64,000 nucleotides of DNA from Segatella copri. Its GTDB lineage: Bacteria > Bacteroidota > Bacteroidia > Bacteroidales > Bacteroidaceae. The notes under the pieces are model-generated. The model saw only the letters and a list, made by a program, of their open reading frames with translations, was not told the origin of the DNA and made no database searches. Where the stretch lies: positions 1,382,001 to 1,446,000 of the forward strand of contig NZ_CP156891.1 in NCBI RefSeq assembly GCF_019249795.2, written 5' to 3'. The translations under genes and the position numbers were made by a program. This document shows, piece after piece, positions 26,936 through 53,854 of the stretch (positions are counted from its first letter, which is position 1; every line of letters starts with the position of its first letter).

Positions 26936-27254
26936 CCTACTCACTTTCCATCTCATTCCCTCATAAAAAGAGTGTGGCAATGCGTGGCATTAGGTGGCAA
27001 CAGAAATACCGCTTATCGATACGCATTATTCACTTATAATCAGCGAGTTAAGCCAAAGGTGACAGATGTGGCAATAGAAACAGAAAAACATTTTCGTATA
27101 AGAATCATAAAGGTAGGAATAAACTTCTTTTTACTTTACCATTCGCATGTATTGGCAATTGTGCAGAAATCATGAACTTCATTATGCGAACTCATCCACT
27201 TCATTTCACGAGTTCATCTACTTCATTGAGTTGACACATACGGCTGCGGTGGCT

Positions 27255-27424
27255 GAAGGAGACGACTGAGTTAGCTGAATGAGTCGACTGCATTAGGTGA
27301 AGGAGACGGCTGAGTTGGCAGAAGGAGACGGCTGCATTAGCTGAAGGAGTCGAATGCAGTGACCGAAGGAGACGAATGCGATAGCTGAAGGAGTCGAATG
27401 CAATAGCTGAAGGAGACACATTTG
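27255..27424. repeat. 22-bp minisatellite, seven full units plus a partial
   Basis: Seven head-to-tail units of exactly 22 bases start at 27255, 27277, 27299, 27321, 27343, 27365 and 27387, each beginning GAAGGAG or GAATGAG. A partial eighth begins at 27409. Units differ at 2-6 positions, mostly A/T at base 8 and in the middle CTGAGTTAGC part. A decayed unit may precede them at 27233-27254. The period is not a multiple of three, so it is not a coding repeat. No gene lies in 26936-27522. Confidence 0.85.
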
Positions 27425-28068: not shown

Positions 28069-28413
28069 TCTTTACAAAATATTGTATTTAAATGCAAATT
28101 TAAAGATTTTCTCTGATATTCCACTCAATTTCGGAGTTAAATAAAGAAAAATAGACTGATTTTGCCAAAATCTTTGCTGGTGATGGAAGAAGAATCATAA
28201 AAGTAGGAGTAAACTTCTCTCTAGAGGCAGAAGAATCTTGGTGAGTTGGAAGGTAGAATAAGCCGTTCCCCTTCTCCTAAGTTTTTACTCTCTAAAACAT
28301 AGCAAAAGTGGTTGTTCGAAATTTCCGAGCAACCACTTTTTTCTTTACCCCATCTTCAACAAGATGTAACTTCTGCCTTCAGGCTATAAACCAAATCGCA
28401 CCTTTATGGAATT
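28069..28413. other. gap between the DUF3791 gene and the CRISPR array
   Basis: No gene seen. It holds a 30-bp near-repeat at 28191-28220 of the sequence at 27101-27130 (27 of 30 identical) and the hairpin at 28304-28340. Confidence 0.5.
28304..28340. terminator. hairpin at the distal end of the CRISPR array
   Basis: Arms AAAAGTGGTTG and CAACCACTTTT, 11 bp, loop 15 bases. It is 74 bases beyond the trailer repeat, in the direction of array transcription (minus). The T tract is better on the plus side, so it may be bidirectional. Confidence 0.55.
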
Positions 28414-29887
28414 ATCTACAATAGTAGAAATTATTGAAGCATACTAGCCTGGCAAGAGACTGGAAGCTGAGCATCAAATCTACAATAGTAGAAATTATTG
28501 AAGCATACTAGCCTTTTTATTTCTTCGGCTGTGGTTATATTTCATCTACAATAGTAGAAATTATTGAAGCATACTAGCCAAAAGGCTACGTGGTACCAGC
28601 TATTCTTTTATCTACAATAGTAGAAATTATTGAAGCATACTAGCCCCTTTGTTTTTGCCTCGTGGTCGTTGCATTATATCTACAATAGTAGAAATTATTG
28701 AAGCATACTAGCCAACTCAACCCGCTAGGCTTCTATACCATATCTACAATAGTAGAAATTATTGAAGCATACTAGCCCTTTGAGTGAAGTCCCTTGTGCT
28801 GCTTGATATCTACAATAGTAGAAATTATTGAAGCATACTAGCCCTGTTTAACCAAAATAGGCACGTTCCCGTCATCTACAATAGTAGAAATTATTGAAGC
28901 ATACTAGCCCGAAAAAGTGCAAAACTTTATTCTAACATAATCTACAATAGTAGAAATTATTGAAGCATACTAGCCCAGCGTTATTCTCCTGCTGGTCAAG
29001 ATTTATCTACAATAGTAGAAATTATTGAAGCATACTAGCCCCCCACCAGCCTACTGTGGCATTCTTCCAATCTACAATAGTAGAAATTATTGAAGCATAC
29101 TAGCCAGGTCTTCGTATCTCGGACATCAGGAAGCTATCTACAATAGTAGAAATTATTGAAGCATACTAGCCCCTTGTTACTACTAGTTTCTTTATTGATG
29201 GATCTACAATAGTAGAAATTATTGAAGCATACTAGCCCCCTTCTCAAAAACACAATATTTCGCCATCTACAATAGTAGAAATTATTGAAGCATACTAGCC
29301 CGCACGATGTGGTAGATCAGCTTCGCTAATCTACAATAGTAGAAATTATTGAAGCATACTAGCCAAAGATGTGCCACCGATGGATCCGCAGATATCTACA
29401 ATAGTAGAAATTATTGAAGCATACTAGCCGTTTATACTTTGTTTCTGTTTTACGTTTGATCTACAATAGTAGAAATTATTGAAGCATACTAGCCAGCAGA
29501 ATAAGCAATACGCAATTGAACCCATCTACAATAGTAGAAATTATTGAAGCATACTAGCCTTCTTAAAATATTTAACACAATACAGACAATCTACAATAGT
29601 AGAAATTATTGAAGCATACTAGCCCCTCACCTTTTAACCTAGAACCATAACCATCTACAATAGTAGAAATTATTGAAGCATACTAGCCATAGTTCATTCT
29701 CGGGTTGCTCAACATTATCTACAATAGTAGAAATTATTGAAGCATACTAGCCTCCTTGCGAAGCTCTGAGAGTACATTTGCTGATCTACAATAGTAGAAA
29801 TTATTGAAGCATACTAGCCCCTCCTGAAGAGAAGAATTATAAACTTGTTGAATCTACAATAGTAGAAATTATTGAAGCATACTAGCC
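28414..29887 (-). CRISPR. type V-A CRISPR array, 23 repeats and 22 spacers
   Basis: Twenty-three 36-bp repeats, all identical as far as I can read, starting at 28414 and ending at 29887. On the minus strand each ends in AATTTCTACTATTGTAGAT, the conserved Cas12a crRNA stem-loop (TCTAC / GTAGA), which fixes the transcription direction as leftward. The 22 spacers are 27-32 nt (most 28-30). The leader-proximal, newest spacer is 29820-29851; the oldest is 28450-28477. No degenerate terminal repeat is seen. I noticed no spacer matching this window by eye, but that check was not exhaustive. Confidence 0.98.
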
Positions 29888-30333: not shown

Positions 30334-31311
30334 TTAAAACTCAAATATTGGATACTCTTTTACAGACTTACAACCCATAAAACAACGATAGTATTGCTGA
30401 ACGAACTTGAATATGTCCATTTTACGAGCAATCAATTCATCATAAAACACTCTATAATAGTCAGCACACTTCTCATATTTCAAATGATATTCCTGCTTTA
30501 TAAGAGTGAAATCTTTCTCTGAAAACTGCTTTCTGTTAAACGCCAACAATGCAGCATGGTCAATGATACACCTGAAAGGTTCCATCAAGTCACACACCAA
30601 TGATTTGCGCTTGAACCATAATCGATGGTACACACCAACATACAGATCAAATCCGAACATACGAATGAAACTTTCCATAAAGTTGAATAGGATAGAGTAA
30701 CCAATATCCAATGTCACATTCAGCACATCGCTCTTCATCCTTGGATGTCTTCCTCTCCAGTTTTGATTCTGATAATATGCAGAAAAATAGGTCTTGGCAA
30801 CCATACCTTCCAATCCCATCAATTGATTGTATTCATCAACGTCTGGCAAAGTAACTAATGCAGCATCACATTGCTTGATGGCATCCTCTGTATAGCTATC
30901 CTTCTTTCGAGTCTTTGCCAATGCAGCTTTCTGATTCAACACCTTATTATATACAATGCATTTAGCGATACTTAAATCTTCTGTACTGTATTCAAATTGC
31001 CTTTTTCGAAGTAAATAGTTTGCCTCGGCAGAATTTGCCCAAAAGAAAACAGGGCGAAGATTAGGCTTCATCACCACTAAAGCCACACCATGCTTTTTGC
31101 ATTTATCAATCAGCGGAGTAGTAACTGTGATGTGACCGATAATGAAAAGAGCCAACAACTTTTGGAAGGGGAACTTAGTCAAGGTCTTTTTCTTATCACC
31201 TTCTATTTCCTCTAGCATCAGTTCTCCGCTATTTACTCGAAGGCTCCGGTCGTGCTCAATACAATTGACCACGAATATGGTTCGCATTTCTATGTCTTTA
31301 TGTGTAAACAT
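30334..31311 (-). CDS. cas1: Cas1 integrase
   Basis: 325 aa. Conserved metal-site residues are visible: Glu in MGLEGMVAKTYF, His in YHRLWFKRKSLVCDLMEPFR, and the Asp/Glu in that same DLMEPFR block. The N-terminal beta domain precedes them. The annotated start (MFTHKDIEM) overlaps cas4 by 14 bases; an internal ATG, MRTIF at 31287, would remove the overlap. It inserts new spacers with Cas2, helped by Cas4. Confidence 0.95.
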   Translation of the reverse strand: MFTHKDIEMRTIFVVNCIEHDRSLRVNSGELMLEEIEGDKKKTLTKFPFQKLLALFIIGHITVTTPLIDKCKKHGVALVVMKPNLRPVFFWANSAEANYLLRKRQFEYSTEDLSIAKCIVYNKVLNQKAALAKTRKKDSYTEDAIKQCDAALVTLPDVDEYNQLMGLEGMVAKTYFSAYYQNQNWRGRHPRMKSDVLNVTLDIGYSILFNFMESFIRMFGFDLYVGVYHRLWFKRKSLVCDLMEPFRCIIDHAALLAFNRKQFSEKDFTLIKQEYHLKYEKCADYYRVFYDELIARKMDIFKFVQQYYRCFMGCKSVKEYPIFEF

Positions 31312-31867
31312 TATCAGTATTGGTTTTATCGCAAAGATTGCAATAGATGCAATGGATGCACTTATTTGGATTTACCTGTATCGTAGTAGAAGCAGGATTA
31401 TAACGTTTAAACTGTTCTATGAATCCTATCAATTCCTGTTTACCAAGCTCTCCCGGCAAGTCAACCGGAATCATTTTATTGGTAGATATTTCATAGAAAG
31501 CAAGTTGTTCAACTTCATATCCCATTTCTTTCAAGCAGAAGTATTGTCCCCAAAGTTGATAAATCTGGCCACGAAAGATGCGTTTGAGATTGTTCTTACG
31601 TTCTATCAACAAACGCTTATCCTGTTTATAGACATCAATCTTGCCAGATATGCCTAACTCATCGCAATAAACCGGGAGCGCCATAATATCACTCTTTCGA
31701 GTACTCCCTTTCTTTTCATCCACGCCTTGGTGCGCTAGAGTACCTTTGGTCTGTGGAGCGGCTTTATATAAATCTCCGTCCGACTCCATATACACACTAT
31801 GCAAGTATATGGAGTACGGACAGAAGATAAAGTCATTCAATGTTGAAAGCTGAATATAATCATCCAT
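31298..31867 (-). CDS. cas4: Cas4 Fe-S exonuclease of the adaptation module
   Basis: 189 aa from ATG 31867 (MDDYIQLSTLNDFIFCPYSI), whose first bases overlap the cas12a stop in an ATGGATGA arrangement; a longer frame from 31921 lies inside cas12a and is rejected. RecB-like nuclease motifs: GKIDVYK (Asp) and LLIERKN (Glu, Lys). Iron-sulfur ligands: the N-terminal FCPYS Cys plus the C-terminal CIHCIYCNLC. Cas4 trims prespacers and helps select the PAM and orientation in type V-A systems. Confidence 0.94.
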   Translation of the reverse strand: MDDYIQLSTLNDFIFCPYSIYLHSVYMESDGDLYKAAPQTKGTLAHQGVDEKKGSTRKSDIMALPVYCDELGISGKIDVYKQDKRLLIERKNNLKRIFRGQIYQLWGQYFCLKEMGYEVEQLAFYEISTNKMIPVDLPGELGKQELIGFIEQFKRYNPASTTIQVNPNKCIHCIYCNLCDKTNTDNVYT

Positions 31868-34800
31868 TCTTATATGGCTTTTGTTGTGCAAAATTGAGCC
31901 AAGCCTTATTGGATATATCAAACTTCACATTATCCAAATCCTCAGCATCTTTTATCTGCTCAACCAACATCAGTCCCTTGCGAGCGATGTTGTAAGCACC
32001 ATTAGCATCCGCATTCTCAGGAAGCTGATCACCACAAGAACGGCTATCGTAGAATATTCCATTCTCATCGGCAACAGGAGACACTAAGTAATCTGTTTCG
32101 GTTCCAGTAATACTATTACGCATCTGCAAGGTCAACTTCAATATGTGCAGCAAGCCAGTAAAGAACGCTTTGTCTGTTTGCGTACTGATAGCATCCTTGA
32201 GATTACCATGAATGTCGATATAATAATGCTCCAATAAAGATTTCATCTCTGTTGTCAAGTCAACTTCCTGATTATCCCACTGCGAGTTCTTTTCTTTATT
32301 TCTGAAAGTATCAATACGCATTCCTCTGGTGCATAAAGTCCACTTAGTCCTTGTATCTTCCGCTTTTTTACCAAACTTGTCATAGTCGAGATTAAACTCA
32401 AACCATTTCTTATCCTTATTATAACGGATAGCATCAAACTTAGAGAAGAATGCTTTGATTTTCTCTTTAGAATTTAAAGAATGAGTATCCAACAAGTTAA
32501 CAAATCCTGTAACTGGGTCTATCTTAGATGTATTCCATGCAGGGATATAGAACAGGAATCCGCTCTGTTTTCCTAACTTTTGAGAACTATCAGACTTACA
32601 GGTAAGTTGGTATGCATTCAGCAAGCCTCCAGGAGTAGAAACATCAGTTTTTTTGTCTACCAAATAGTTAAGCTTATCTATCAACATTTTTTCAAACTTC
32701 TGATATACTTGCTTTTCTACCTTTTGACGACTACGCATAAATCCCTTGCTCAGATCTTCCAAAACAACAATGGCATGATATCTAACCATGAGCTGTGTAA
32801 TCTTGTGGATAACCTGAGACAAATAGCCCTCTTTCAGCTCTTTGATATTTTCGATGGTCTGCCAACTTTGACGAGCTTTGAGTCGTTCGTCTTCACGAAC
32901 ATCCAACAAATCGTGATAATTGGTATGATAGGTATTACCATTATAATCATTCACAATTTCATTAAGCGAGAACTGCTCCTTGATATTACCTTGCAAATCA
33001 ATTACAACCAAATACAGCAAATGACGTTCGCCACGATCAATACCAATAATATGCATATCATCTGCGTGACGCAAATACGCCTTCACATCTTGATTGATGT
33101 TCTCAGAACCAGAACTTTTAAAGTTCATTGTGATTGGCACATGGAACATAAATTTATCAACAGTGTAGCGACGATCTTTTATAAGATCATATTCAAACAA
33201 GCTTTCTTTTTTCTTGTTATCCTTATTCTTATTAAGAATAGGATGATTAGCAGGATGAGTTGGATGAGTATTTTCTATACTTTTCTTACGATAGAACATC
33301 TCTGCCTGTCCGTTAAGCTTGTAAACTACATCTGCCAGATTACGTTCATCAAACAATGCTTTCCAATAAAGAGTATGCATATTTGGAGTGCCCTTGCTAT
33401 ACTCAGAGAAATCCTTATTGTAGATTTGGAACAGATACATCTTTCCCTCCTCAACAAGCTGATCAATAAATGATGCAGATACATCTGTAAACGACAATTT
33501 ATACAACAACAAATTAACATCCTGATAGAAAGAGTCGAGTGACAAATATGACTCCGGTTTCAAAGAAGAGAAATCATATATGCAAGTGCTATCATAGCTG
33601 TCCAAAAAATCCATACAGAATTTTATCCATACGTTTACAGCATGAGTATAACCTACATTATCACCAGTAGCAGTCAAGTATCCCTTTTGGAATTTCTTAT
33701 ACTTACCATACAATACATTGTTCAAATCAAAGACTTCCTTTGTTATCGTCAATGGCCTGTTAAACGCCTTGCTATTTAAGACGTAATCATCTGTATTAAC
33801 CTTAAAATAAGCTTGTACATCTTTTAATTGTGTACTACACTTTGGTATCATCGTTGTCACGTCTTTGAAGAACTTATATACCATTTTCTCATAGCACTCC
33901 CCATCTGACGGCATTGCCTTACCCAATAACTTCCTTGAGTCTTTGTCCATAATAGCAAGATAATACAACCCATTACGACGTAAGATAATGGTAGCATAGT
34001 CTTTCTCCTTATTAGCATCCCAACCACCAAGCAATTGAGGATTCTCAAAGTTAAGTTTGATTTTCTTTTGAGAATATGGTTTACGAGTCATATAATTACG
34101 AATCATATTATACAGCGGTGTCACTGTATCAAGTTCTGCCCACAACGAAGCTAGTTCACCATAGAAACGTTCATCTTTATCACTTTCATCACCCTTGCCC
34201 AACAGAGGCTTCACGAAATGCTGCAAAGACTTTATTGCATCCAACAGTGCTTTGATTTTAGAAACATTAGCCTTGTCTTGTGCCAGATGCTTTACCGTAG
34301 GATAATCAGAATGAAGTAATGCAGCAACTTCTGTATACGCATTTTGAACAAGCGCAAACAGATTCTCACGCTGCATTGTTGGAGTATTTACCGCTCCAAA
34401 TGTCGCAAAATAGTTCTCTACGAAGTAGGCATTATTAGGGTCTGCTTCGTTCAAACAATCATTTATATAACTGATACTAAAGCTATCAGCCTTTTTAAAT
34501 ATACCTACAATTCTTTTTTCGTAATCTTCCTCAGATTCCTTATGCTTTCTGGCAGGAGCAACATGCTTTATATCCTGCATGATGGCATTCTGAATCACGC
34601 CCCAATTTCCAAACATTTTCTGAGAAATATCAGTCAACTGCAAGTCATTACGGATAAATATCCCATCAAGAGAATAATCTGCCAAAGAACCAAGCAAAGA
34701 CTTAAGAACCTTATCACCCAAAACATTTTCAGACAATCGCTCATAGCAATCCTTGATAGCATTCAAGACTTCCTGATCACTATTGAATTCTTCTGGCAAC

Positions 34801-35780
34801 CAAGAAATTGCATTTCTATCACTAAGAATCTGCTTAAACAAAGCCTTAAGTTTTGGTAACTTGTCATCTTTATGCTTCTGATTGTAGAGATTGATATACT
34901 CGTTGATACCTTTAATCTTAACATCGTGTTCATCATCAGTTTTTCCACCAATTATAGCATTATAGACATCAATCTGCTTTTGAGTAAGAAGCATATTGTA
35001 ATAGTCAAGCTGGAACATTTCCTGAATACTTTCTACATTTAAGTATTCAGAAAAATTAGAGTATAACTCATCCATGTTAGCTTGTATCTCAGGTCTGGTT
35101 ATGGCTGTATTAAATGCCTCCATATTATCAATGAACTTTGGGAGATTTTCATTGATTAGACGATAAGCAATACCTGTTGACTTATCTTCTGCCGTATACA
35201 TATTTTTACGATTATCAAAGAAGCCGTAAAAATAAGTAACAAAGCCCCAGAATTCTTTCACAAGTTCTTTGGCCTCATCTTGTGACATAGAATCAAGTTG
35301 AGTTGATTCCGCAGTATTGATGAATTGAATCAAATCTGAATCAATTAGCTTTGTCTTATCAGCTTTGTCCTTATATGACTCTATAAGTTTATTACCAAAC
35401 AAATTAGCATAAGCCTTATAGTCTGTTAGCTTTTTAGCTATAATAGAGCGAAGATTTTGCTGAATTTCCTTAAACTTCTTTATTGCATCCTCATCTTGCG
35501 CTTTAGATACATAGCTCTCATAATATTCTGCCAATGAATTATTATCACCTTTATCATCCAAAGGCAAACATCCATTATCCAACACTCTATCAATAAATAC
35601 CTTGTGGTATTCATCAATCAATTTCTTCACCTTCACATAGCTTGCAGCTCTGTGTTCATCTTCTTCTAACAAACCACTCTTAACTATATTATCCAAAGTG
35701 GCGCCAATAGGCTTCGCTTCAAAGCGCAAAGTCTTTGAAAGAGGATAAAGTCTTTTAAAATCTTCAAAATTCTTAGCCAT
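31860..35780 (-). CDS. cas12a: Cas12a (Cpf1) effector nuclease
   Basis: 1306 aa, the normal Cas12a size. The N-terminus (FKRLYPLSKTLRFEAKPIG) is the WED-I start. RuvC catalytic residues are all present: Asp915 in IIGIDRGERHL, Glu1008 in VVLEDLSKGFMRSR, and Asp1258 in ENADANGAYNIARKG. The Nuc-domain Arg is Arg1221 in LQMRNSITGTETDY. The RNA-processing region before RuvC-I (His/Lys-rich, near residues 840-890) is kept, so the protein should mature its own crRNAs without a tracrRNA. It should cut dsDNA beside a T-rich PAM. First cas gene of the operon, 5 bases after a small ORF. Confidence 0.98.
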   Translation of the reverse strand: MAKNFEDFKRLYPLSKTLRFEAKPIGATLDNIVKSGLLEEDEHRAASYVKVKKLIDEYHKVFIDRVLDNGCLPLDDKGDNNSLAEYYESYVSKAQDEDAIKKFKEIQQNLRSIIAKKLTDYKAYANLFGNKLIESYKDKADKTKLIDSDLIQFINTAESTQLDSMSQDEAKELVKEFWGFVTYFYGFFDNRKNMYTAEDKSTGIAYRLINENLPKFIDNMEAFNTAITRPEIQANMDELYSNFSEYLNVESIQEMFQLDYYNMLLTQKQIDVYNAIIGGKTDDEHDVKIKGINEYINLYNQKHKDDKLPKLKALFKQILSDRNAISWLPEEFNSDQEVLNAIKDCYERLSENVLGDKVLKSLLGSLADYSLDGIFIRNDLQLTDISQKMFGNWGVIQNAIMQDIKHVAPARKHKESEEDYEKRIVGIFKKADSFSISYINDCLNEADPNNAYFVENYFATFGAVNTPTMQRENLFALVQNAYTEVAALLHSDYPTVKHLAQDKANVSKIKALLDAIKSLQHFVKPLLGKGDESDKDERFYGELASLWAELDTVTPLYNMIRNYMTRKPYSQKKIKLNFENPQLLGGWDANKEKDYATIILRRNGLYYLAIMDKDSRKLLGKAMPSDGECYEKMVYKFFKDVTTMIPKCSTQLKDVQAYFKVNTDDYVLNSKAFNRPLTITKEVFDLNNVLYGKYKKFQKGYLTATGDNVGYTHAVNVWIKFCMDFLDSYDSTCIYDFSSLKPESYLSLDSFYQDVNLLLYKLSFTDVSASFIDQLVEEGKMYLFQIYNKDFSEYSKGTPNMHTLYWKALFDERNLADVVYKLNGQAEMFYRKKSIENTHPTHPANHPILNKNKDNKKKESLFEYDLIKDRRYTVDKFMFHVPITMNFKSSGSENINQDVKAYLRHADDMHIIGIDRGERHLLYLVVIDLQGNIKEQFSLNEIVNDYNGNTYHTNYHDLLDVREDERLKARQSWQTIENIKELKEGYLSQVIHKITQLMVRYHAIVVLEDLSKGFMRSRQKVEKQVYQKFEKMLIDKLNYLVDKKTDVSTPGGLLNAYQLTCKSDSSQKLGKQSGFLFYIPAWNTSKIDPVTGFVNLLDTHSLNSKEKIKAFFSKFDAIRYNKDKKWFEFNLDYDKFGKKAEDTRTKWTLCTRGMRIDTFRNKEKNSQWDNQEVDLTTEMKSLLEHYYIDIHGNLKDAISTQTDKAFFTGLLHILKLTLQMRNSITGTETDYLVSPVADENGIFYDSRSCGDQLPENADANGAYNIARKGLMLVEQIKDAEDLDNVKFDISNKAWLNFAQQKPYKNG

Positions 35781-43996: not shown

Positions 43997-44085
43997 AAAC
44001 AGACCGACATGAACGTTTGTTCACATCGGTCTGTTTACTCTTTTACTTTTTTACTTTTTTACCTTTTTACCCTTTTACTTTTAAA
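43997..44085 (-). terminator. terminator region of the helicase gene with T/C-rich tandem tract
   Basis: A hairpin at about 43999-44034 (arms ACAGACCGA / TCGGTCTGT with inner pairing) is flanked by a tract of near-8-base units (CTTTTTTA type) at 44037-44085. The tract covers the helicase stop at 44067. The hairpin lies past the stop on the minus strand. Confidence 0.55.
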
Positions 44086-46937
44086 AGATTGATTGTCTGT
44101 GTTTTTCCCGTGATACCTGTTACCACGGCGATTCCATTGTCACGAATCTCCACCTTCTCATATTTGGCATCAACAATCACTTTTCCTTTCAATGTCATAA
44201 CGCCCCAATGTCTGGGAATCTCTTCAAAGGCGCAATAGGCACCAACAGGTTGCGCTATACTGCAGTAGAGGGGTGGCACGACAACTTTACCATCTACCTT
44301 CACGCCCCATTTCTTTCCTGCTTGATACAATTCTACATGTCCTGCTTCTGACTTCTCATGCAAAAGAAGCATCTCGTTTTCTTCCATTTCCTTCTTTTGC
44401 AACATCGCCTCATGATAGTATTTCTTGCCAAGGCGAGGCATCACAAAATTCAAATCTTCATTTTCATTCTTTGGATGATTGCATCCTATATAAGTCTTCT
44501 TCAAATTTGAATCCACCAGGTAGTAGTCCTCTTTGCTGTCCATGACAACGATACGTTCACCATACAGGACTGCACATAACCAATACACATGTTCGTAATC
44601 ATTACGCAGGAAACATACATTCCTGCTTTCTTCATTGCTCATGCGCATCTTCCCTTCATCACCCTCACAATAGTACCATACCTGACAACCGGGAGCAGAA
44701 GGTCTGAATCTGAATATCATATAATAGCCATAATTCAGAAAATCATATTGTGAAGGATGATAGGGCAGAGAAAAATCTTCTTGGGTTCGAGACATGAAGA
44801 TGTCGTTATATTCTATAAACTCCCATCCTTTTATGTTGACAACATGGGGAGTTTCTGCTACGTTAGTGCCATCGTCGATGACAGCTTTTGCCAACAGGTC
44901 ATAATAGCATTTCGCCTTTCTGCGAGGTCGGTAGAACAGGATGTTGCCATCCAACAGCTTCATGTCATAGTAATCGCCTGGCTCCAAGACCTGTTCTCCT
45001 TGTCGGTTCACTACCGTCATCTTTCCATCAGGCAGTTTGATGATGGCAAACTCCCCTTTGCTATCTACGAACTCACGATACTGTAGTGTTTGGAGCAATT
45101 CTTCATGGCTCATCACCATCATCATTTCTGAGTCTGGATGAATCTGAATATCGTCTTGCTTCTCGTTCATCAGGAAAAACTCTCTATCCTTCGGAGTCTC
45201 CTTTCTCTTGCCAACTTTCAGCTTTCCCTCGAACATAGCATTCCAGTTCCATACTTGCGAAGGCAATCCGAACACCCGATATAGTCCCACATTATCTATA
45301 ATTACGCAGTTCTTCTTTCCCTTAGCTACTCGCAATCCTCGTCCCACCATCTGCAGATACTTGGCAAGCGACAATGTAGGTCGAGCCAACTGTACAAACT
45401 CCACATCCGGGCAGTCAAATCCCTCCGAGAATATGTCCACATTCACCAGCACTTGTATAGGAGCAAGTCCATCAGCAGCCCGCAAGCAAGTAGCACCAAG
45501 CCCATCGCCAACTTTATCAGCAGCCCGCAAACAAGTAGCACCCAGGCGGTCCCATCCCGCACAATCTGGCGAGACCTTTGATGGTCCGCCATCCTTAGAG
45601 CGTAGCGGTTCCGAGCACCGAGTAGGGCGGTTTCCTCCCTCTCCCCTGAGGGTGAGAGGGTCGGGGTGAGAGGTGGAGCCCTCTTTAAGGGTAAAGAGGG
45701 ACGGGGTGATTTTAGAAAAATTGACAGGGTGATTCGAAAAAGAAGTATTAGAAGCTTTGAACCTTTCTATAAGTTCTTTTCGTAAAGAACTTGGCGTTTT
45801 ACTATCAATAGCAACAGCCGCTATGCCGTGTTCTCTGTAGAACTCGGCAATAGCATTAGCATGCCTGATATTGATAGCATACACGATGCCCTTTCTATCT
45901 TTACCATATTCCTCCAAGCTCCGATAGAGCCTTTCGATGCTCGGCTTCTTATTCAGCAACATATCCATTTCCTTGTTTTGGTAGTCACCGTCTGCCCCTC
46001 GCTTCTGCAAGGAGTCGATGAGCCGTTGCGTCACACCATCTGATTTGATGCTCACAAAATCGTATGTCGCCAATCTTCCCTTGCTGATAAACTCAGGAAC
46101 ACTCCACGACTGCACCAAGACATCAAACAAATCCGTAAATCCCTTACCATTCAATCGGCAAGGTGTAGCCGTCAGTCCCAGGAACTTAGCATTTGGGAAT
46201 CTCTCCCACATCTCCTTATAGGTCTTGGCAAGCGCATGGTGCGCCTCGTCAATCACAATCATCCCCGGTTCTTCCTCTATCTCGTCATAGTGTTTCGACA
46301 ACCATTGTATCGACACAGCCTTTATCGGCATCATGTCAGAAGTAGGATTATCAGAAGAGGCAGAAGTTGCACCAAGTCCATCTCCACCCCTCTCACCCAG
46401 GCGGTCCCCAAGTTCCTCAGCAGACCGCAAGCAAGTAGCAGCAAGCCCATCAGCAGGCCGCAAGCAAGAAGCAGTAAGGCGGTCCCATCCCGCACAATCT
46501 GGCGAGACCTTTGATGGTCCGCCAACCTTAGAGCGAAGCGGTTCCGAGCACCGAGTAGGGCGGTTTCCTCCCTCTCCCCTGAGGGTGAGAGGGTCGGGGT
46601 GAGAGGTGGAGCCCTCTTTAATGGTAAAGAGGGACGGGGTGATTTTAGAAGAATTGACAGGGTGGTTCGAAAAATCCTTATAAAGAAGGGATGGGGTTTT
46701 AGAAAAGACTCTTTGAATAGTTTCTCGAATCTGAGAAACCAGCTCCCTTCTATGGGCAACAATCCAAACATTGCAATTGGAATGTTCCCTCAAAAACGAT
46801 TCTACGACCGAAGCGAGTAGAACCGTTTTTCCCGTACCCGTTGGCATTTGTGCCATCACGGACCGATGAAGGCGCAACGCCTTCTCAATCCGTTCCTTCA
46901 TATCCTCTTGGTAATCAAAAAGCTTAATATTCTTCAT
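44067..46937 (-). CDS. DEAH-box superfamily 2 helicase with two in-frame repeat-derived insertions
   Basis: 956 aa from ATG 46937 (MKNIKLFDYQEDMKERI); the 46979 start adds 14 residues. Walker A is MPTGTGKT (31-38), DEAH begins at Asp230 (VIDEAHHA), and motif VI is QMVGRGLR (about 529-536). The C-terminal ~400 residues are unassigned, with WG-like short beta repeats (KKWGVKVDGKVVVPPLYCSI). Residues ~88-200 and ~399-494 are low-complexity insertions, each containing SKITPSLFT, then HPDPLTLRGEGGN, then RCSEPLRSK. These correspond to a DNA repeat also found between genes nearby. Removing both gives ~750 aa, closer to relatives. Reading frame is intact, so the gene may still be functional. Confidence 0.85.
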   Translation of the reverse strand: MKNIKLFDYQEDMKERIEKALRLHRSVMAQMPTGTGKTVLLASVVESFLREHSNCNVWIVAHRRELVSQIRETIQRVFSKTPSLLYKDFSNHPVNSSKITPSLFTIKEGSTSHPDPLTLRGEGGNRPTRCSEPLRSKVGGPSKVSPDCAGWDRLTASCLRPADGLAATCLRSAEELGDRLGERGGDGLGATSASSDNPTSDMMPIKAVSIQWLSKHYDEIEEEPGMIVIDEAHHALAKTYKEMWERFPNAKFLGLTATPCRLNGKGFTDLFDVLVQSWSVPEFISKGRLATYDFVSIKSDGVTQRLIDSLQKRGADGDYQNKEMDMLLNKKPSIERLYRSLEEYGKDRKGIVYAINIRHANAIAEFYREHGIAAVAIDSKTPSSLRKELIERFKASNTSFSNHPVNFSKITPSLFTLKEGSTSHPDPLTLRGEGGNRPTRCSEPLRSKDGGPSKVSPDCAGWDRLGATCLRAADKVGDGLGATCLRAADGLAPIQVLVNVDIFSEGFDCPDVEFVQLARPTLSLAKYLQMVGRGLRVAKGKKNCVIIDNVGLYRVFGLPSQVWNWNAMFEGKLKVGKRKETPKDREFFLMNEKQDDIQIHPDSEMMMVMSHEELLQTLQYREFVDSKGEFAIIKLPDGKMTVVNRQGEQVLEPGDYYDMKLLDGNILFYRPRRKAKCYYDLLAKAVIDDGTNVAETPHVVNIKGWEFIEYNDIFMSRTQEDFSLPYHPSQYDFLNYGYYMIFRFRPSAPGCQVWYYCEGDEGKMRMSNEESRNVCFLRNDYEHVYWLCAVLYGERIVVMDSKEDYYLVDSNLKKTYIGCNHPKNENEDLNFVMPRLGKKYYHEAMLQKKEMEENEMLLLHEKSEAGHVELYQAGKKWGVKVDGKVVVPPLYCSIAQPVGAYCAFEEIPRHWGVMTLKGKVIVDAKYEKVEIRDNGIAVVTGITGKTQTINLLKVKG
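45455..45741. repeat. composite repeat copy A, inside the helicase gene
   Basis: Core 45545-45715 (171 bp) begins GGCGGTCCCATCCCGC and ends GATTTTAG. Before it lie about two units of a 33-bp tandem repeat (GCAAGCAAGTAGCA type) read on the minus strand as GLGATCLRAAD. The 171-bp core is exactly 57 codons with no stop in the helicase frame. Confidence 0.8.
46339..46675. repeat. composite repeat copy B, inside the helicase gene
   Basis: Core 46478-46648, again 171 bp and nearly identical to copy A. It is preceded by degenerate 33-bp-type units at about 46360-46477. It falls between the helicase motifs I and II in the coding sequence and keeps the frame. Confidence 0.8.
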
Positions 46938-47057
46938 ATAAAAGCATATAATGAATATAGCGTCCCTGCTATATTCCAAGCAGTGACACCTATCAGTATG
47001 TTAAAAAGTAAGATGGTATCTTTTTTTAAATTCAAAAAAAGAAAAGTCAAAAAGACG

Positions 47058-47937: not shown

Positions 47938-48050
47938 TACGCTTTTTTCTCGAAAACACCAAGAAAATCAAAAGAAATCTGCAACTTATCATCAAATTGC
48001 TACAAAATCAACTGTAAACAATAAACTATTAACTGTAAACTATAAACTGC
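47938..48050. repeat. promoter-side repeat of the GNAT cassette
   Basis: This ~113-bp stretch is about 80% identical by eye to 49686-49797, upstream of the DUF3800 gene. It runs from the -7 box into A/T-rich DNA with reiterated ACTGTAAAC / TATAAACT. The composite repeat follows directly in both places. Confidence 0.7.
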
Positions 48051-48078
48051 TATTCCCTACCTCAGCAAGCTATAGTAA

Positions 48079-48438
48079 GGCGGTCCCATCCCGCATAACA
48101 TGGCGAAGACCTTTGATGGTCCGCCAACCTTAGAGCGTAGCGGTTCTGAGCACCGGAGGGCGGTTACATCCTTCCCTTTTCGAGAAGGGAAGGCTTGGTT
48201 AGGATGTGGAGCTCTCCTTGCAGGAGAGACGGAGAGGTAGAAAAGTCAGCACTGAGGGCGGTTACATCCCTAATCCCTATGGTAGGGATTTAGGGCTTGG
48301 GTATAGGGTAAGGACCCTCCCGCAGGGGAGGGACAGGTGGGGCAAATATAGCACTGTAGGGCGATTTCCCTCTTCTTGTATATCACCAATACAGCGTCCC
48401 CACTATATTACAAATAGTTACACCTATCAGTTTTTTGA
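48079..48438. repeat. composite repeat copy C, intergenic
   Basis: Head 48079-48155 matches the heads of copies A, B and D. Then come modules each starting GGGCGGTTACATCC: one with a CTCTCCTTGCAGGAGAG hairpin and one with CCCTCCCGCAGGGGAGGG. The right end (48388-48438) resembles 46952-47002, upstream of the helicase start. No gene lies in 47899-48772. Confidence 0.8.
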
Positions 48439-48735
48439 AAAAAATTATATTTGCTCCCCATCGCAGTATCGCTCTGCGCTTGTCGCCACTCGAATGAGAA
48501 AAAATGCATTAATTAATATGGTGCACAACTATTAATCCTGACTAAATCTAATTTTTACATTCTTACAACACACAAAATGATTCTGCTTCCTTACAAGTTC
48601 TGCGGTAGTATGTAAGTAATCCCTACATGCTTTTAAAATCTTTTTTGAACTCCCTTCAAAAAACTATGCAAATACATTAATAGATAGGGATTTTTGTTAA
48701 TCTTGATTAAACTTACCCCAAAATCAAGTTGAATA

Positions 48736-49685: not shown

Positions 49686-49797
49686 TACGCTTTTTCCTCG
49701 AAACCACCAAGAAAATCGAAAGAAATCTGCAACTCATCAACAAATTACCACAAAAATCTGTAAACTATAAACTGTTAACTGTAAATTGCTATTTCCC
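49686..49797. repeat. promoter-side repeat of the DUF3800 cassette
   Basis: Near-copy of 47938-48050. It overlaps the promoter end of the DUF3800 gene on one side and joins composite repeat copy D on the other. Confidence 0.7.
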
Positions 49798-49798
49798 A

Positions 49799-50210
49799 GG
49801 CGGTCCCATCCCGCACAATATGGCGCAGGGCTTTGATGCCCCGCCAACCTTATAGCGAAGCGGTTCCGAGCACCGGAGGGCGGTTACATCCCTAATCCCT
49901 ATGGTAGGGATTTAGGGCTTGGGTATAGGGTAAGGACCCTCCCGCAGGGGAGGGACAGGTGGGGCAAATATAGCACTGTAGGGCGGTTACATCCTTCCTT
50001 CTGAGGTTTCTGTCCCCTACAAGGGGAACCGAAGGGGGCGTAAAGACTATTGAGAAGGCTTGGTTAGAGGTGGAGCTCTCCTTGCAGGAGAGACGGAGAG
50101 GTAGAAAATCCAGCACTGTAGGGCGGTTTTCCTCTTCTTCCCTGAGGGGAGAAGACCGAGATGAGAGGTGGAGCCTTCTTTAATGGTAAAGAAGGACGGG
50201 ATGATTTTAG
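49799..50210. repeat. composite repeat copy D, intergenic
   Basis: The longest copy. The head matches A-C. The next module (49879-49980) is nearly identical to one in copy C, then further GGGCGGTT modules with hairpins (CTCTCCTTGCAGGAGAG; CCCTGAGGGGAG). It ends GATTTTAG as in A and B. It fills the gap between DUF3800 and the rfbC remnant; no gene is visible in it. Confidence 0.8.
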
Positions 50211-50268
50211 AGGGAAAGCACCTCAATATTATTAGAAAAACACCTTTCTTCTAGTATTCAAAAGGACT

Positions 50269-52765: not shown

Positions 52766-53854
52766 TTATTTCTTATATTTTATCCTCCAGAAGAAGTGCC
52801 AAATGCGAAACAATGGCTCACAGAGGGCTTCTGCAGGAAAATACGTCACGAGTCTCATATCCCTATAAACCCTTTGAAGATTATGACCCAGCTTTGATCT
52901 TCCGAAGCGATTCCTTTCATCATGCTTACCGAAGTTCCCGGCTTCCAGCACTTCATTCAGCACAAACTTACCATATTTCTCATTAGGAGGAACGATAAGG
53001 CGAGAGGTAGGCATACCGAACACCTCGTGCATAATATACATGATAGCCCCAGCAAACTTCCACAATCCCAACTCCTTCAATTCCTTCTGCAAGGAAGTTA
53101 AAATTTCACAGTTAACACTTAACATTAAAACCAAATAGTAGTAATCAAGAAGCTGTCTCAACCCAATCCCCTCGTTCATCAAATGTGTAAAGATATGAGT
53201 CAATTGGAAGATGAGGTTGAATTCCACTGTCGGAATCGCAACCTCCTCTTGCTTTACCAATATTACCCGATGCGAGAACTGATCCTCCTTCACCCTATCA
53301 TAATATTTCTGAAGTTTTCTGTTATGCCAGAAGCACAGCAGGAAGCTAGGCCGATAATGCACTTCCACCTCCACACCCTTATACGATGGGAACTCAATGT
53401 GGTGATAGCACGCCTTTTCATGAGGCGAGATAGAGCGGACAAAGGAGATGACCCGTTTATCTCCCCCTTCCATCCAGATATCAATATCACCAGGCGTCCG
53501 AGAATAAGGATTCGGATACATCAATGTATTTCCCTGTCCTTTCAGGATACAGGTTCTGAATCCCTTCTTCCGGAACCACTCAGAAACCTGGATGACAGCA
53601 TCGTTCAACCGAACATTCGCCTTCTCCAGCATCTGACTTTCTGCCATCCATTGAAGCAGTAACTCCTTCTTCATCCCTACATGTTCCGCAGGCAGCTTCT
53701 TGATACCATCAAAGAGAATACCTACAAGACATTGCTTCTGGGCAATAGCATACAGTTCCTTCCAATCCGCCTCCTTCAAGGAATCAGGTATTTCCTTGTC
53801 AGAACCAATGCAGAATCGCAAGAAATCAAAGAAAAACTTTAGTTGTTTGTCCAT
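52766..53854 (-). CDS. nucleotidyltransferase-family protein (NTP_transf_5 type)
   Basis: 362 aa. The central NTase-like motif is FRTCILKGQGNTLMYPNPYSRTPGDIDIWM, with the DIDIW acidic pair, followed by HHIEFPSYKGVEVEVHYRPSF. This is the pattern of uncharacterised NTP_transf_5 proteins that often sit in surface-polysaccharide clusters. Substrate unknown. It begins the minus-strand sugar locus on its downstream side. Confidence 0.75.
   Translation of the reverse strand: MDKQLKFFFDFLRFCIGSDKEIPDSLKEADWKELYAIAQKQCLVGILFDGIKKLPAEHVGMKKELLLQWMAESQMLEKANVRLNDAVIQVSEWFRKKGFRTCILKGQGNTLMYPNPYSRTPGDIDIWMEGGDKRVISFVRSISPHEKACYHHIEFPSYKGVEVEVHYRPSFLLCFWHNRKLQKYYDRVKEDQFSHRVILVKQEEVAIPTVEFNLIFQLTHIFTHLMNEGIGLRQLLDYYYLVLMLSVNCEILTSLQKELKELGLWKFAGAIMYIMHEVFGMPTSRLIVPPNEKYGKFVLNEVLEAGNFGKHDERNRFGRSKLGHNLQRVYRDMRLVTYFPAEALCEPLFRIWHFFWRIKYKK

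What the first reader, a model, noticed from the sequence alone, without database searches (positions are those of the whole stretch)
44067..46937. Helicase gene carrying two in-frame insertions of an intergenic repeat
Two 171-bp repeat cores (57 codons each) with flanking 33-bp tandem units lie inside the helicase between motifs I and II and between motifs IV and V. The frame and all helicase motifs remain. The same repeat occurs twice in nearby non-coding DNA. This recalls palindromic elements that insert peptides in Rickettsia genes, but in a Bacteroidota with a different sequence.
Basis: partly seen in the sequence, partly recalled or inferred. Interest (0 to 1): 0.75.

Follow-up and report, generated by a model that had tools for sequence, protein, structure and literature searches.

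The report
Repeat DNA translated inside a helicase
A gut bacterium's DNA helicase gene carries two stretches of scattered repeat DNA that stay in the protein's reading frame, vary greatly between strains and appear to recombine, while some related species carry different repeats in the same two loops.

Summary
A RadD-like helicase (44070-46937, minus, 956 aa), probably from Segatella (Prevotella) copri, holds two in-frame inserts of about 124 and 99 codons. Both derive from a mosaic hairpin repeat scattered, mostly outside long ORFs, through three related genomes (15, 19 and 32 DNA matches). Alleles lacking one or both inserts exist. The helicase core is under purifying selection (dN/dS 0.06-0.22). 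An AlphaFold model gives an ordered helicase core with both inserts as disordered loops between a helix and a strand. The same element, in the same frame, interrupts a nucleotidyltransferase gene, whose copy in this window is empty. Inserts are hypervariable: nine proteins identical over their last 430 residues have nine different site-2 inserts. Fifteen of 349 fetched proteins are rearranged between inserts, ten of them fusing the two genes; assembly error is not excluded. In other genomes of the group, 8 of 34 helicase loci carry different inserts at the same two sites; five of seven tested are repeats of their own genome. The kind (in-frame palindromic repeats in Rickettsia, intragenic REPs in repair genes) is known. 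Hypervariability, shared frame, fusions and recurrence make this a new variant.

The parts
44070..46937 (-). RadD-like SF2 helicase gene with a weak C-terminal WG-type repeat, 956 aa, carrying two in-frame repeat inserts
   Evidence: Pfam ResIII, Helicase_C, WG_beta_rep below cut-off; NCBIfam best hit RadD 118.7 bits, below its 720 cut-off; RadD chains are the top 8 in the structure search
46701..46937 (-). helicase core, N part (aa 1-79, with P-loop and motif Ia)
   Evidence: coordinates; dN/dS per segment
46329..46700 (-). insert 1 (aa 80-203), in-frame mosaic repeat
   Evidence: absent in P0165, P0196, P0197, P0137, P0177; pLDDT about 30
46476..46553 (-). 78-nt conserved core of the element in insert 1
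46612..46633 (.). hairpin in insert 1, 9-bp arms
45756..46328 (-). helicase core, middle part (aa 204-394, DEAH box to motif IV)
45459..45755 (-). insert 2 (aa 395-493), in-frame mosaic repeat
   Evidence: absent in P0165; pLDDT about 30
45543..45620 (-). 78-nt conserved core of the element in insert 2
45679..45700 (.). hairpin in insert 2, 9-bp arms
44070..45458 (-). helicase core, C part (aa 494-956)
48061..48441 (-). intergenic mosaic copy; core shifted by one base, stops in all six frames
49791..50220 (-). intergenic mosaic copy; core shifted by one base, stops in all six frames
52766..53854 (-). NTP_transf_5 (PF14907) gene, empty at the site where G047 carries the same element in frame

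Best explanation
A mosaic of small hairpin repeats, scattered mostly outside long ORFs in S. copri-type genomes, has become established in two helix-to-strand loops of a RadD-like helicase in the one frame that stays open. The repeat is translated as two long disordered loops, and the helicase core keeps its fold and is kept by purifying selection. Once inside genes, the coding copies recombine with each other, and sometimes with outside copies, by ordinary homology. This makes inserts of ever-changing length and module content, truncated alleles when the frame is lost, and in-frame rearrangements when two coding copies recombine, because the element is read in the same frame at all three coding sites seen. 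Shown from sequence: presence, frame, empty alleles, core constraint, repeat identity, variability, presence in a second gene, filled sites in other genomes. Inferred: translation in the cell, recombination as the cause of the variation, near-neutrality of the loops, and the original insertion route, which is unknown.
For: Empty sites: P0165 lacks both inserts (747 aa); 5 of 257 proteins have an empty site 1 and 2 of 233 an empty site 2. Repeat nature: 15, 19 and 32 DNA matches in G047, G044, G001. Frame: 11 of 12 cores inside the two host genes undisrupted against 9 of 37 outside them, Fisher p 5e-5; the flagged one lies in the IS-broken G047 copy and is in frame in its ORF. Core constraint: whole-core dN/dS 0.057-0.224 for the window against four other gene copies, inserts 0.49-0.99. 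Cores of 70 nt or more: coding copies resemble each other (98.1%, 21 pairs) more than copies outside (91.2%, 245 pairs), permutation p 0.0002. Variability: 208 distinct site-1 and 182 distinct site-2 sequences among 257 and 233; nine proteins identical over the last 430 aa have nine site-2 inserts. Second host: NTP_transf_5 in G047 filled, the window copy empty. Rearrangements: 15 of 349. Structure: most of the core near pLDDT 90, inserts about 30, between helix 64-78 and strand 205-209 and between helix 383-395 and strand 496-499. Recurrence: 8 of 34 loci of other genomes filled at the same sites; in five of seven tested the insert is a repeat of its own genome.
Against: No RNA or protein data. 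The protein lists are the best 120 of 7969, 7976 and 6966 matches and hold only predicted ORFs, so frame loss is under-counted; 9 of 18 partial helicases end in or just after insert 2 before the C core, from frameshift, stop or contig end. Most sources are unnamed assemblies, where repeats invite chimeras. The frame test uses a coding copy as reference. Insert dN/dS rests on uncertain mosaic alignments. Two of seven inserts tested in other genomes (G033, G130) found no second copy, in partial searches only.
Confidence: 0.8

Rival explanations
1. The loops are adaptive: the cell keeps and diversifies them because variable loops change what the helicase (possibly a defence or repair helicase) binds, like a hypervariable region.
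For: Both sites are filled in nearly all fetched alleles (252 of 257 and 231 of 233 not empty) with high diversity; the same sites are filled in some other genomes; the helicase region matches helicase parts of restriction and defence proteins in PADLOC.
Against: Insert dN/dS is 0.49-0.99, not above 1; the inserts have no predicted structure; the same element also sits in a nucleotidyltransferase, and another hairpin sits in unrelated genes of G198, which fits tolerance better than one adaptive role.
Confidence: 0.15
2. The inserts are removed before or during protein making (intron, intein or translational bypass), so the mature protein is uninterrupted.
For: Each insert contains a 9-bp-arm hairpin and lies inside a conserved enzyme; insert 1 folds somewhat better than shuffles, z -2.1.
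Against: The inserts stay open in the gene's frame while the window's two intergenic copies are closed in all six, which is not needed if they are removed; no intein or other extra domain in Pfam and no Rfam match above gathering score in the window; insert 2 folds no better than shuffles, z -0.4.
Confidence: 0.04
3. The helicase is a decaying pseudogene and the open frame is luck.
For: One G047 copy is broken by an IS with a DDE transposase inside insert 2; truncated proteins exist.
Against: Core dN/dS 0.06-0.22; 229 of 349 fetched proteins have the full helicase order.
Confidence: 0.04
4. About the fusions only: the fusion, deletion and duplication proteins are assembly errors at near-identical repeats, so only insertion and length variation are real. 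This can be true together with the best explanation.
For: All 15 rearranged proteins are listed from source ena only, 9 of 15 with a longest contig under 10 kb; P. copri is reported to be hard to assemble because of repeated sequence (passages of PMC7283042).
Against: Some lie on longer contigs (P0167 61 kb, P0001 33 kb, P0002 30 kb, P0130 21 kb); the junctions of the ten gene fusions differ from each other.
Confidence: 0.4

Closest known systems
Rickettsia palindromic elements (RPE) inside protein-coding genes (Ogata et al., recalled; described in passages of PMC3733652; RPE-bearing proteins listed in passages of PMC2635572)
   Same: Interspersed palindromic repeat read in frame inside genes that likely encode functional proteins.
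   Different: Different phylum; mosaic inserts of 99-124 codons here; same frame in two genes with gene fusions; allele-level hypervariability. RPE sequence homology not tested.
Intragenic REP elements, GTAG/CGTC families (PMC3733652; section 15 and passages read)
   Same: Repeats inside genes, many in replication and repair genes; dual inserts in one gene (uvrA); different REPs at about the same site of recB in two Xanthomonas species; clusters encoding 43-82 aa.
   Different: The word Prevotella does not occur in its main text; no tag or RAYT link shown here; hypervariable modular inserts and gene fusions are not in the parts I read.
BIME / mosaic REP clusters
   Same: The intergenic copies are built of several small hairpin modules in varying order.
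   Different: The units are not shown to be REPs; no neighbouring RAYT found at the sensitivity used.
RadD (YejH) DNA repair helicase
   Same: Best solved-structure match by sequence and by fold.
   Different: Longer C-terminal region with a weak WG-type repeat; below the NCBIfam equivalog cut-off.
Coding palindromes in Nematomorpha mitochondrial genes (PMC6649704, search listing and start of abstract only)
   Same: Inverted repeats embedded in protein-coding genes.
   Different: Mitochondrial; from the abstract start both arms encode protein, and I saw nothing of an interspersed family.

Membership tests
In-frame intragenic interspersed repeat (general kind that includes RPE) | Multi-copy in the genome, including copies outside genes | tested here: met
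   window copies and three related genomes; the window's own genome is not held
In-frame intragenic interspersed repeat (general kind that includes RPE) | Insert lies inside a conserved gene with uninterrupted homologs | tested here: met
In-frame intragenic interspersed repeat (general kind that includes RPE) | Host protein made and functional | not testable with these tools
   only indirect: core dN/dS 0.06-0.22, model
Rickettsia palindromic element | Sequence homology to an RPE family | not tested
   no RPE sequence was fetched or compared
REP / RAYT system | 20-40 bp palindrome tagged by GTAG or CGTC | tested here: inconclusive
   hairpins and GTAG strings occur in all four window copies, but no fixed tag position was established
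REP / RAYT system | Associated Y1 tyrosine transposase flanked by the repeat | tested here: not met
   Y1_Tnp over the cut-off in G047 and G044, not in G001; no listed element match lies near 3.305-3.308 Mb in G047 or on contigs C6, C7, C11 of G044
RadD helicase | NCBIfam equivalog NF053632 above cut-off | tested here: not met
   118.7 bits against 720
RadD helicase | RadD-type two-domain SF2 fold | tested here: inconclusive
   Foldseek top 8 hits are RadD with E 4e-18 to 2e-14, but TM only 0.43-0.50 by target and rmsd 9-18
Intein | Intein or homing endonuclease domain in the insert | tested here: not met
   no such Pfam match in the 956-aa protein

The most novel reading that the evidence does not exclude
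A non-coding mosaic repeat that is open in one frame works as a natural in-frame joint: because it is read in the same frame inside several genes, recombination between copies shuffles domains between unrelated proteins (helicase and nucleotidyltransferase) and resizes loops, a bacterial counterpart of exon shuffling; and the same two loops of RadD-like helicases are repeatedly colonised by whichever repeat each Prevotella lineage carries.
Probability: 0.4. Interest if true: 0.85.

Novelty: new variant of a known kind. Interest (0 to 1): 0.68.

Why it matters
It gives a gut commensal, with thousands of sequenced homologs, in which insertion of non-coding repeats into proteins can be followed allele by allele: filled, empty, resized, truncated and seemingly fused states all occur at one locus. 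The open question raised by RPEs and intragenic REPs, whether such inserts are tolerated noise or a source of new protein parts, becomes testable with natural alleles. It also warns that assemblies and annotations of such loci need long reads.

Tried and rejected
Own genome: none held, so counts come from three related genomes. A first AlphaFold run on 39 near-identical alleles was useless (pLDDT 32); a second, with 38 phage RadD-like relatives among its 44 rows, gave an ordered helicase core. Phage carriage of the element: one exact 17-nt hit among viral contigs, with only an 18-nt match around it, rejected; the G047 nucleotidyltransferase gave no viral hit. RAYT origin: not supported. Target-site duplication: not resolved, because the filled and empty nucleotidyltransferase alleles differ too much around the junction. 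RNA structure as the selected feature: z -0.4 for insert 2 and -2.1 for insert 1, not decisive. All 38 phage relatives aligned are uninterrupted at site 2, but they were taken as unbroken matches, so this is no independent proof. Literature: Prevotella copri with interspersed repeat (none), repetitive extragenic palindrome with Prevotella (nine titles that look unrelated), Segatella copri with repeat, helicase and insertion (none), Bacteroidetes with palindromic repeat and in-frame insertion (none), Prevotella with intragenic, palindromic, repeat element and reading frame (one title that looks unrelated), Prevotella copri with repetitive element (four titles, of which I saw passages of one): no description of this element seen; the library holds open-licence papers only.

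Full report
WHAT IS THERE. The gene at 44070-46937 (minus) is a 956-codon helicase with Pfam ResIII and Helicase_C domains and a WG repeat below its cut-off. Among the close relatives, those that carry a source's name are called DEAD/DEAH box helicase of Segatella copri (P0051, P0118; P0192), and the full-length matches among named genome records are two loci of S. copri strain iA622, so the window is taken to be S. copri; no whole genome is held for it. Two stretches, aa 80-203 and aa 395-493, share a 226-nt repeat at 95% identity.

THEY ARE INSERTS. P0165 (747 aa) runs through both places with short loops, and P0137, P0177, P0196 and P0197 have only insert 2. Of 257 proteins in which site 1 could be measured 5 are empty, and of 233 for site 2, 2 are empty, one of them a protein with a doubled middle. 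I then read 34 helicase loci of other genomes, the best-scoring ones fetched; they come from 30 genomes, one per species in that collection, kinship not told, identity to the query about 36-64% per segment. Dropped before the count: two loci without a suitable ORF (L040, L179), one duplicate (L172) and two re-fetched loci (L177, L183). With thresholds of 50 residues for site 1 and 40 for site 2 (usual 31-48 and 27-29), 26 of 34 are empty at both. The 38 phage relatives aligned, of 80 kept from a longer list, all have an 18-residue site 2, but they were taken as unbroken matches.

THE INSERTS ARE AN INTERSPERSED REPEAT. With insert 2 as query, genomes G047, G044 and G001 give 15, 19 and 32 matches at E 0.01 or better. 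Most lie outside long ORFs. Among 398 genomes drawn from the genus, 21 have any match at E 0.001, but only these three have near-full-length ones. The window's two intergenic copies are mosaics of small hairpin units, and both inserts hold the same 9-bp-arm hairpin; 27 of 300 random 300-nt stretches of the window hold a hairpin with arms of 8 bp or more.

FRAME. The 78-nt core is undisrupted in 11 of 12 copies inside the two host genes and in 9 of 37 outside them, most of which carry one extra base (Fisher p 5e-5; partial matches down to 45 columns included). The one flagged in-gene copy lies downstream of the IS in G047 and reads in frame in its ORF. Insert 1 is open only in the gene's frame, insert 2 in that frame and one other, and the window's two intergenic copies in none of six. 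The reference for the core test was a coding copy, so it shows that coding copies share one frame form, not which form is older.

THE GENE IS UNDER CONSTRAINT. Against four other gene copies (one read in two pieces because an IS with a DDE transposase splits it inside insert 2), dN/dS of the whole core is 0.057 to 0.224; for the inserts it is 0.49 to 0.99. AlphaFold2 with 44 rows gives pLDDT near 90 for most of residues 1-81, 202-396 and 490-575 and about 30 for both inserts, which fall between a helix and a strand in each helicase domain; the last 380 residues are poorly predicted (mean pLDDT 54.6, pTM 0.51). RadD is the best sequence match among solved structures and fills the top eight fold matches, with modest TM-scores.

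HYPERVARIABLE AND APPARENTLY RECOMBINED. Site 1 has 208 distinct sequences among 257 proteins (53 lengths), site 2 has 182 among 233 (60 lengths), and the nucleotidyltransferase site 59 among 85; one group of nine proteins identical over the last 430 residues carries nine different site-2 inserts in eight lengths, while the next largest groups show one or two. For cores of 70 nt or more (42 copies, 7 in host genes), coding copies are 98.1% alike (21 pairs) against 91.2% to outside copies (245 pairs) and 89.4% among outside copies (595 pairs), permutation p 0.0002, not corrected for relatedness. The same element in the same frame interrupts an NTP_transf_5 gene in G047, within the Pfam domain as judged from the uninterrupted window copy, which is empty there (52766-53854). 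Of 349 proteins fetched in three searches (best 120 listed of 7969, 7976 and 6966 matches), 229 have the normal helicase order, 85 the normal nucleotidyltransferase order, 18 and 2 are partial helicases, and 15 are rearranged: 8 + 1 helicase start with nucleotidyltransferase end, 1 the reverse, 3 with the helicase middle lost, 2 with it doubled. Each junction contains the repeat. Nine of the 18 partial helicases stop in or just after insert 2 before the C core. This is what recombination between repeats would give, but assembly error can imitate it: all 15 come from source ena, 9 of 15 on contigs under 10 kb, and P. copri assemblies are reported to break at repeats (passages of PMC7283042). 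All 120 proteins listed for the nucleotidyltransferase insert belong to these two genes, so no third host was seen, within that size range and list.

THE SAME SITES IN OTHER GENOMES. Eight of 34 loci have an insert at one of the two sites (L016, L176 at site 1; L023, L024, L027, L028, L029, L175 at site 2). The peptides look unlike each other; the G082 insert (L175) shows weak similarity to the S. copri element (76% over 79 nt). Seven of the eight were tested against their own genomes; L024 was not. Five are repeats: G067 gives 52 match rows, G198 17, G090 15, G101 7, all counting the site itself and both strands, and G082, whose 211-residue insert contains two 162-nt copies 98% alike, has at least six further places among the 22 of 60 hit rows shown, in 239 kb searched. 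G033 and G130 found no other copy in 107 and 200 kb. G090 carries its palindrome twice in the helicase, at site 2 and at a third loop just before the DEAH box, and G101 carries its repeat at site 2 and again in the C-terminal part, all in frame. In G198 the hairpin also lies in frame in other genes: of nine further loci looked at (L147-L155), six gave ORFs with Pfam domains (MMPL, DUF5107/TPR, DUF2264, Kdo transferase, fucosidase, ABC transporter); in G101 one such gene, a DegT aminotransferase, was seen. So in G198 and G101 the helicase is one host among several.

KNOWN OR NEW. In-frame palindromic repeats are known from Rickettsia, and intragenic REPs were described with many in replication and repair genes, dual inserts in uvrA, and different REPs at about one site in recB of two Xanthomonas species (PMC3733652, section 15 and passages). 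REPs as IS targets (PMC1525189, abstract) match the IS in the G047 copy. So the kind is known. What I saw in none of the titles, abstract starts or passages returned is the allele-level hypervariability, the shared frame in two genes with fusions, and the recurrence in the same loops across Prevotella.

LIKELY WORKING. Insertion first, by an unknown route; survival only where the loop tolerates it and the frame stays open; then ordinary recombination between copies. The translated loops are most likely neutral or nearly so; an adaptive role is possible and testable with natural alleles.

Noticed in passing
window 28413-29887, 30334-31311 (-), 31860-35780 (-): Type V-A CRISPR system: a repeat array with a 36-nt repeat, Cas1 (TIGR04329) and Cas12a (TIGR04330, 1461.6 bits).
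   Followed up: partly
window 27240-27417: 22-bp tandem repeat, about 8 copies, near the CRISPR array.
   Followed up: no
window 46946-47007 and 48380-48441: A separate 62-nt AT-rich repeat lies just upstream of the helicase start and at the end of an intergenic element; relatives occur in stretches of the related genomes.
   Followed up: no
window 48010-48048 and 53101-53129: Heptamer-like AACTATA array before an intergenic element; a similar-looking string sits at the empty nucleotidyltransferase site, perhaps a trace of an earlier insertion.
   Followed up: no
L090 4452-6982 (G047): IS with a 654-aa DDE transposase inserted inside insert 2 of one G047 helicase; part of a second copy lies near 2.186 Mb.
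   Followed up: partly
G001 (L102, L103) and G047 (L090, L091): Two helicase paralogs per genome, each with inserts at both sites.
   Followed up: partly
L147-L155 (G198): The hairpin coding for peptides like SLTPSPSPTGEG lies in frame in several unrelated genes of one Prevotella-group genome.
   Followed up: partly
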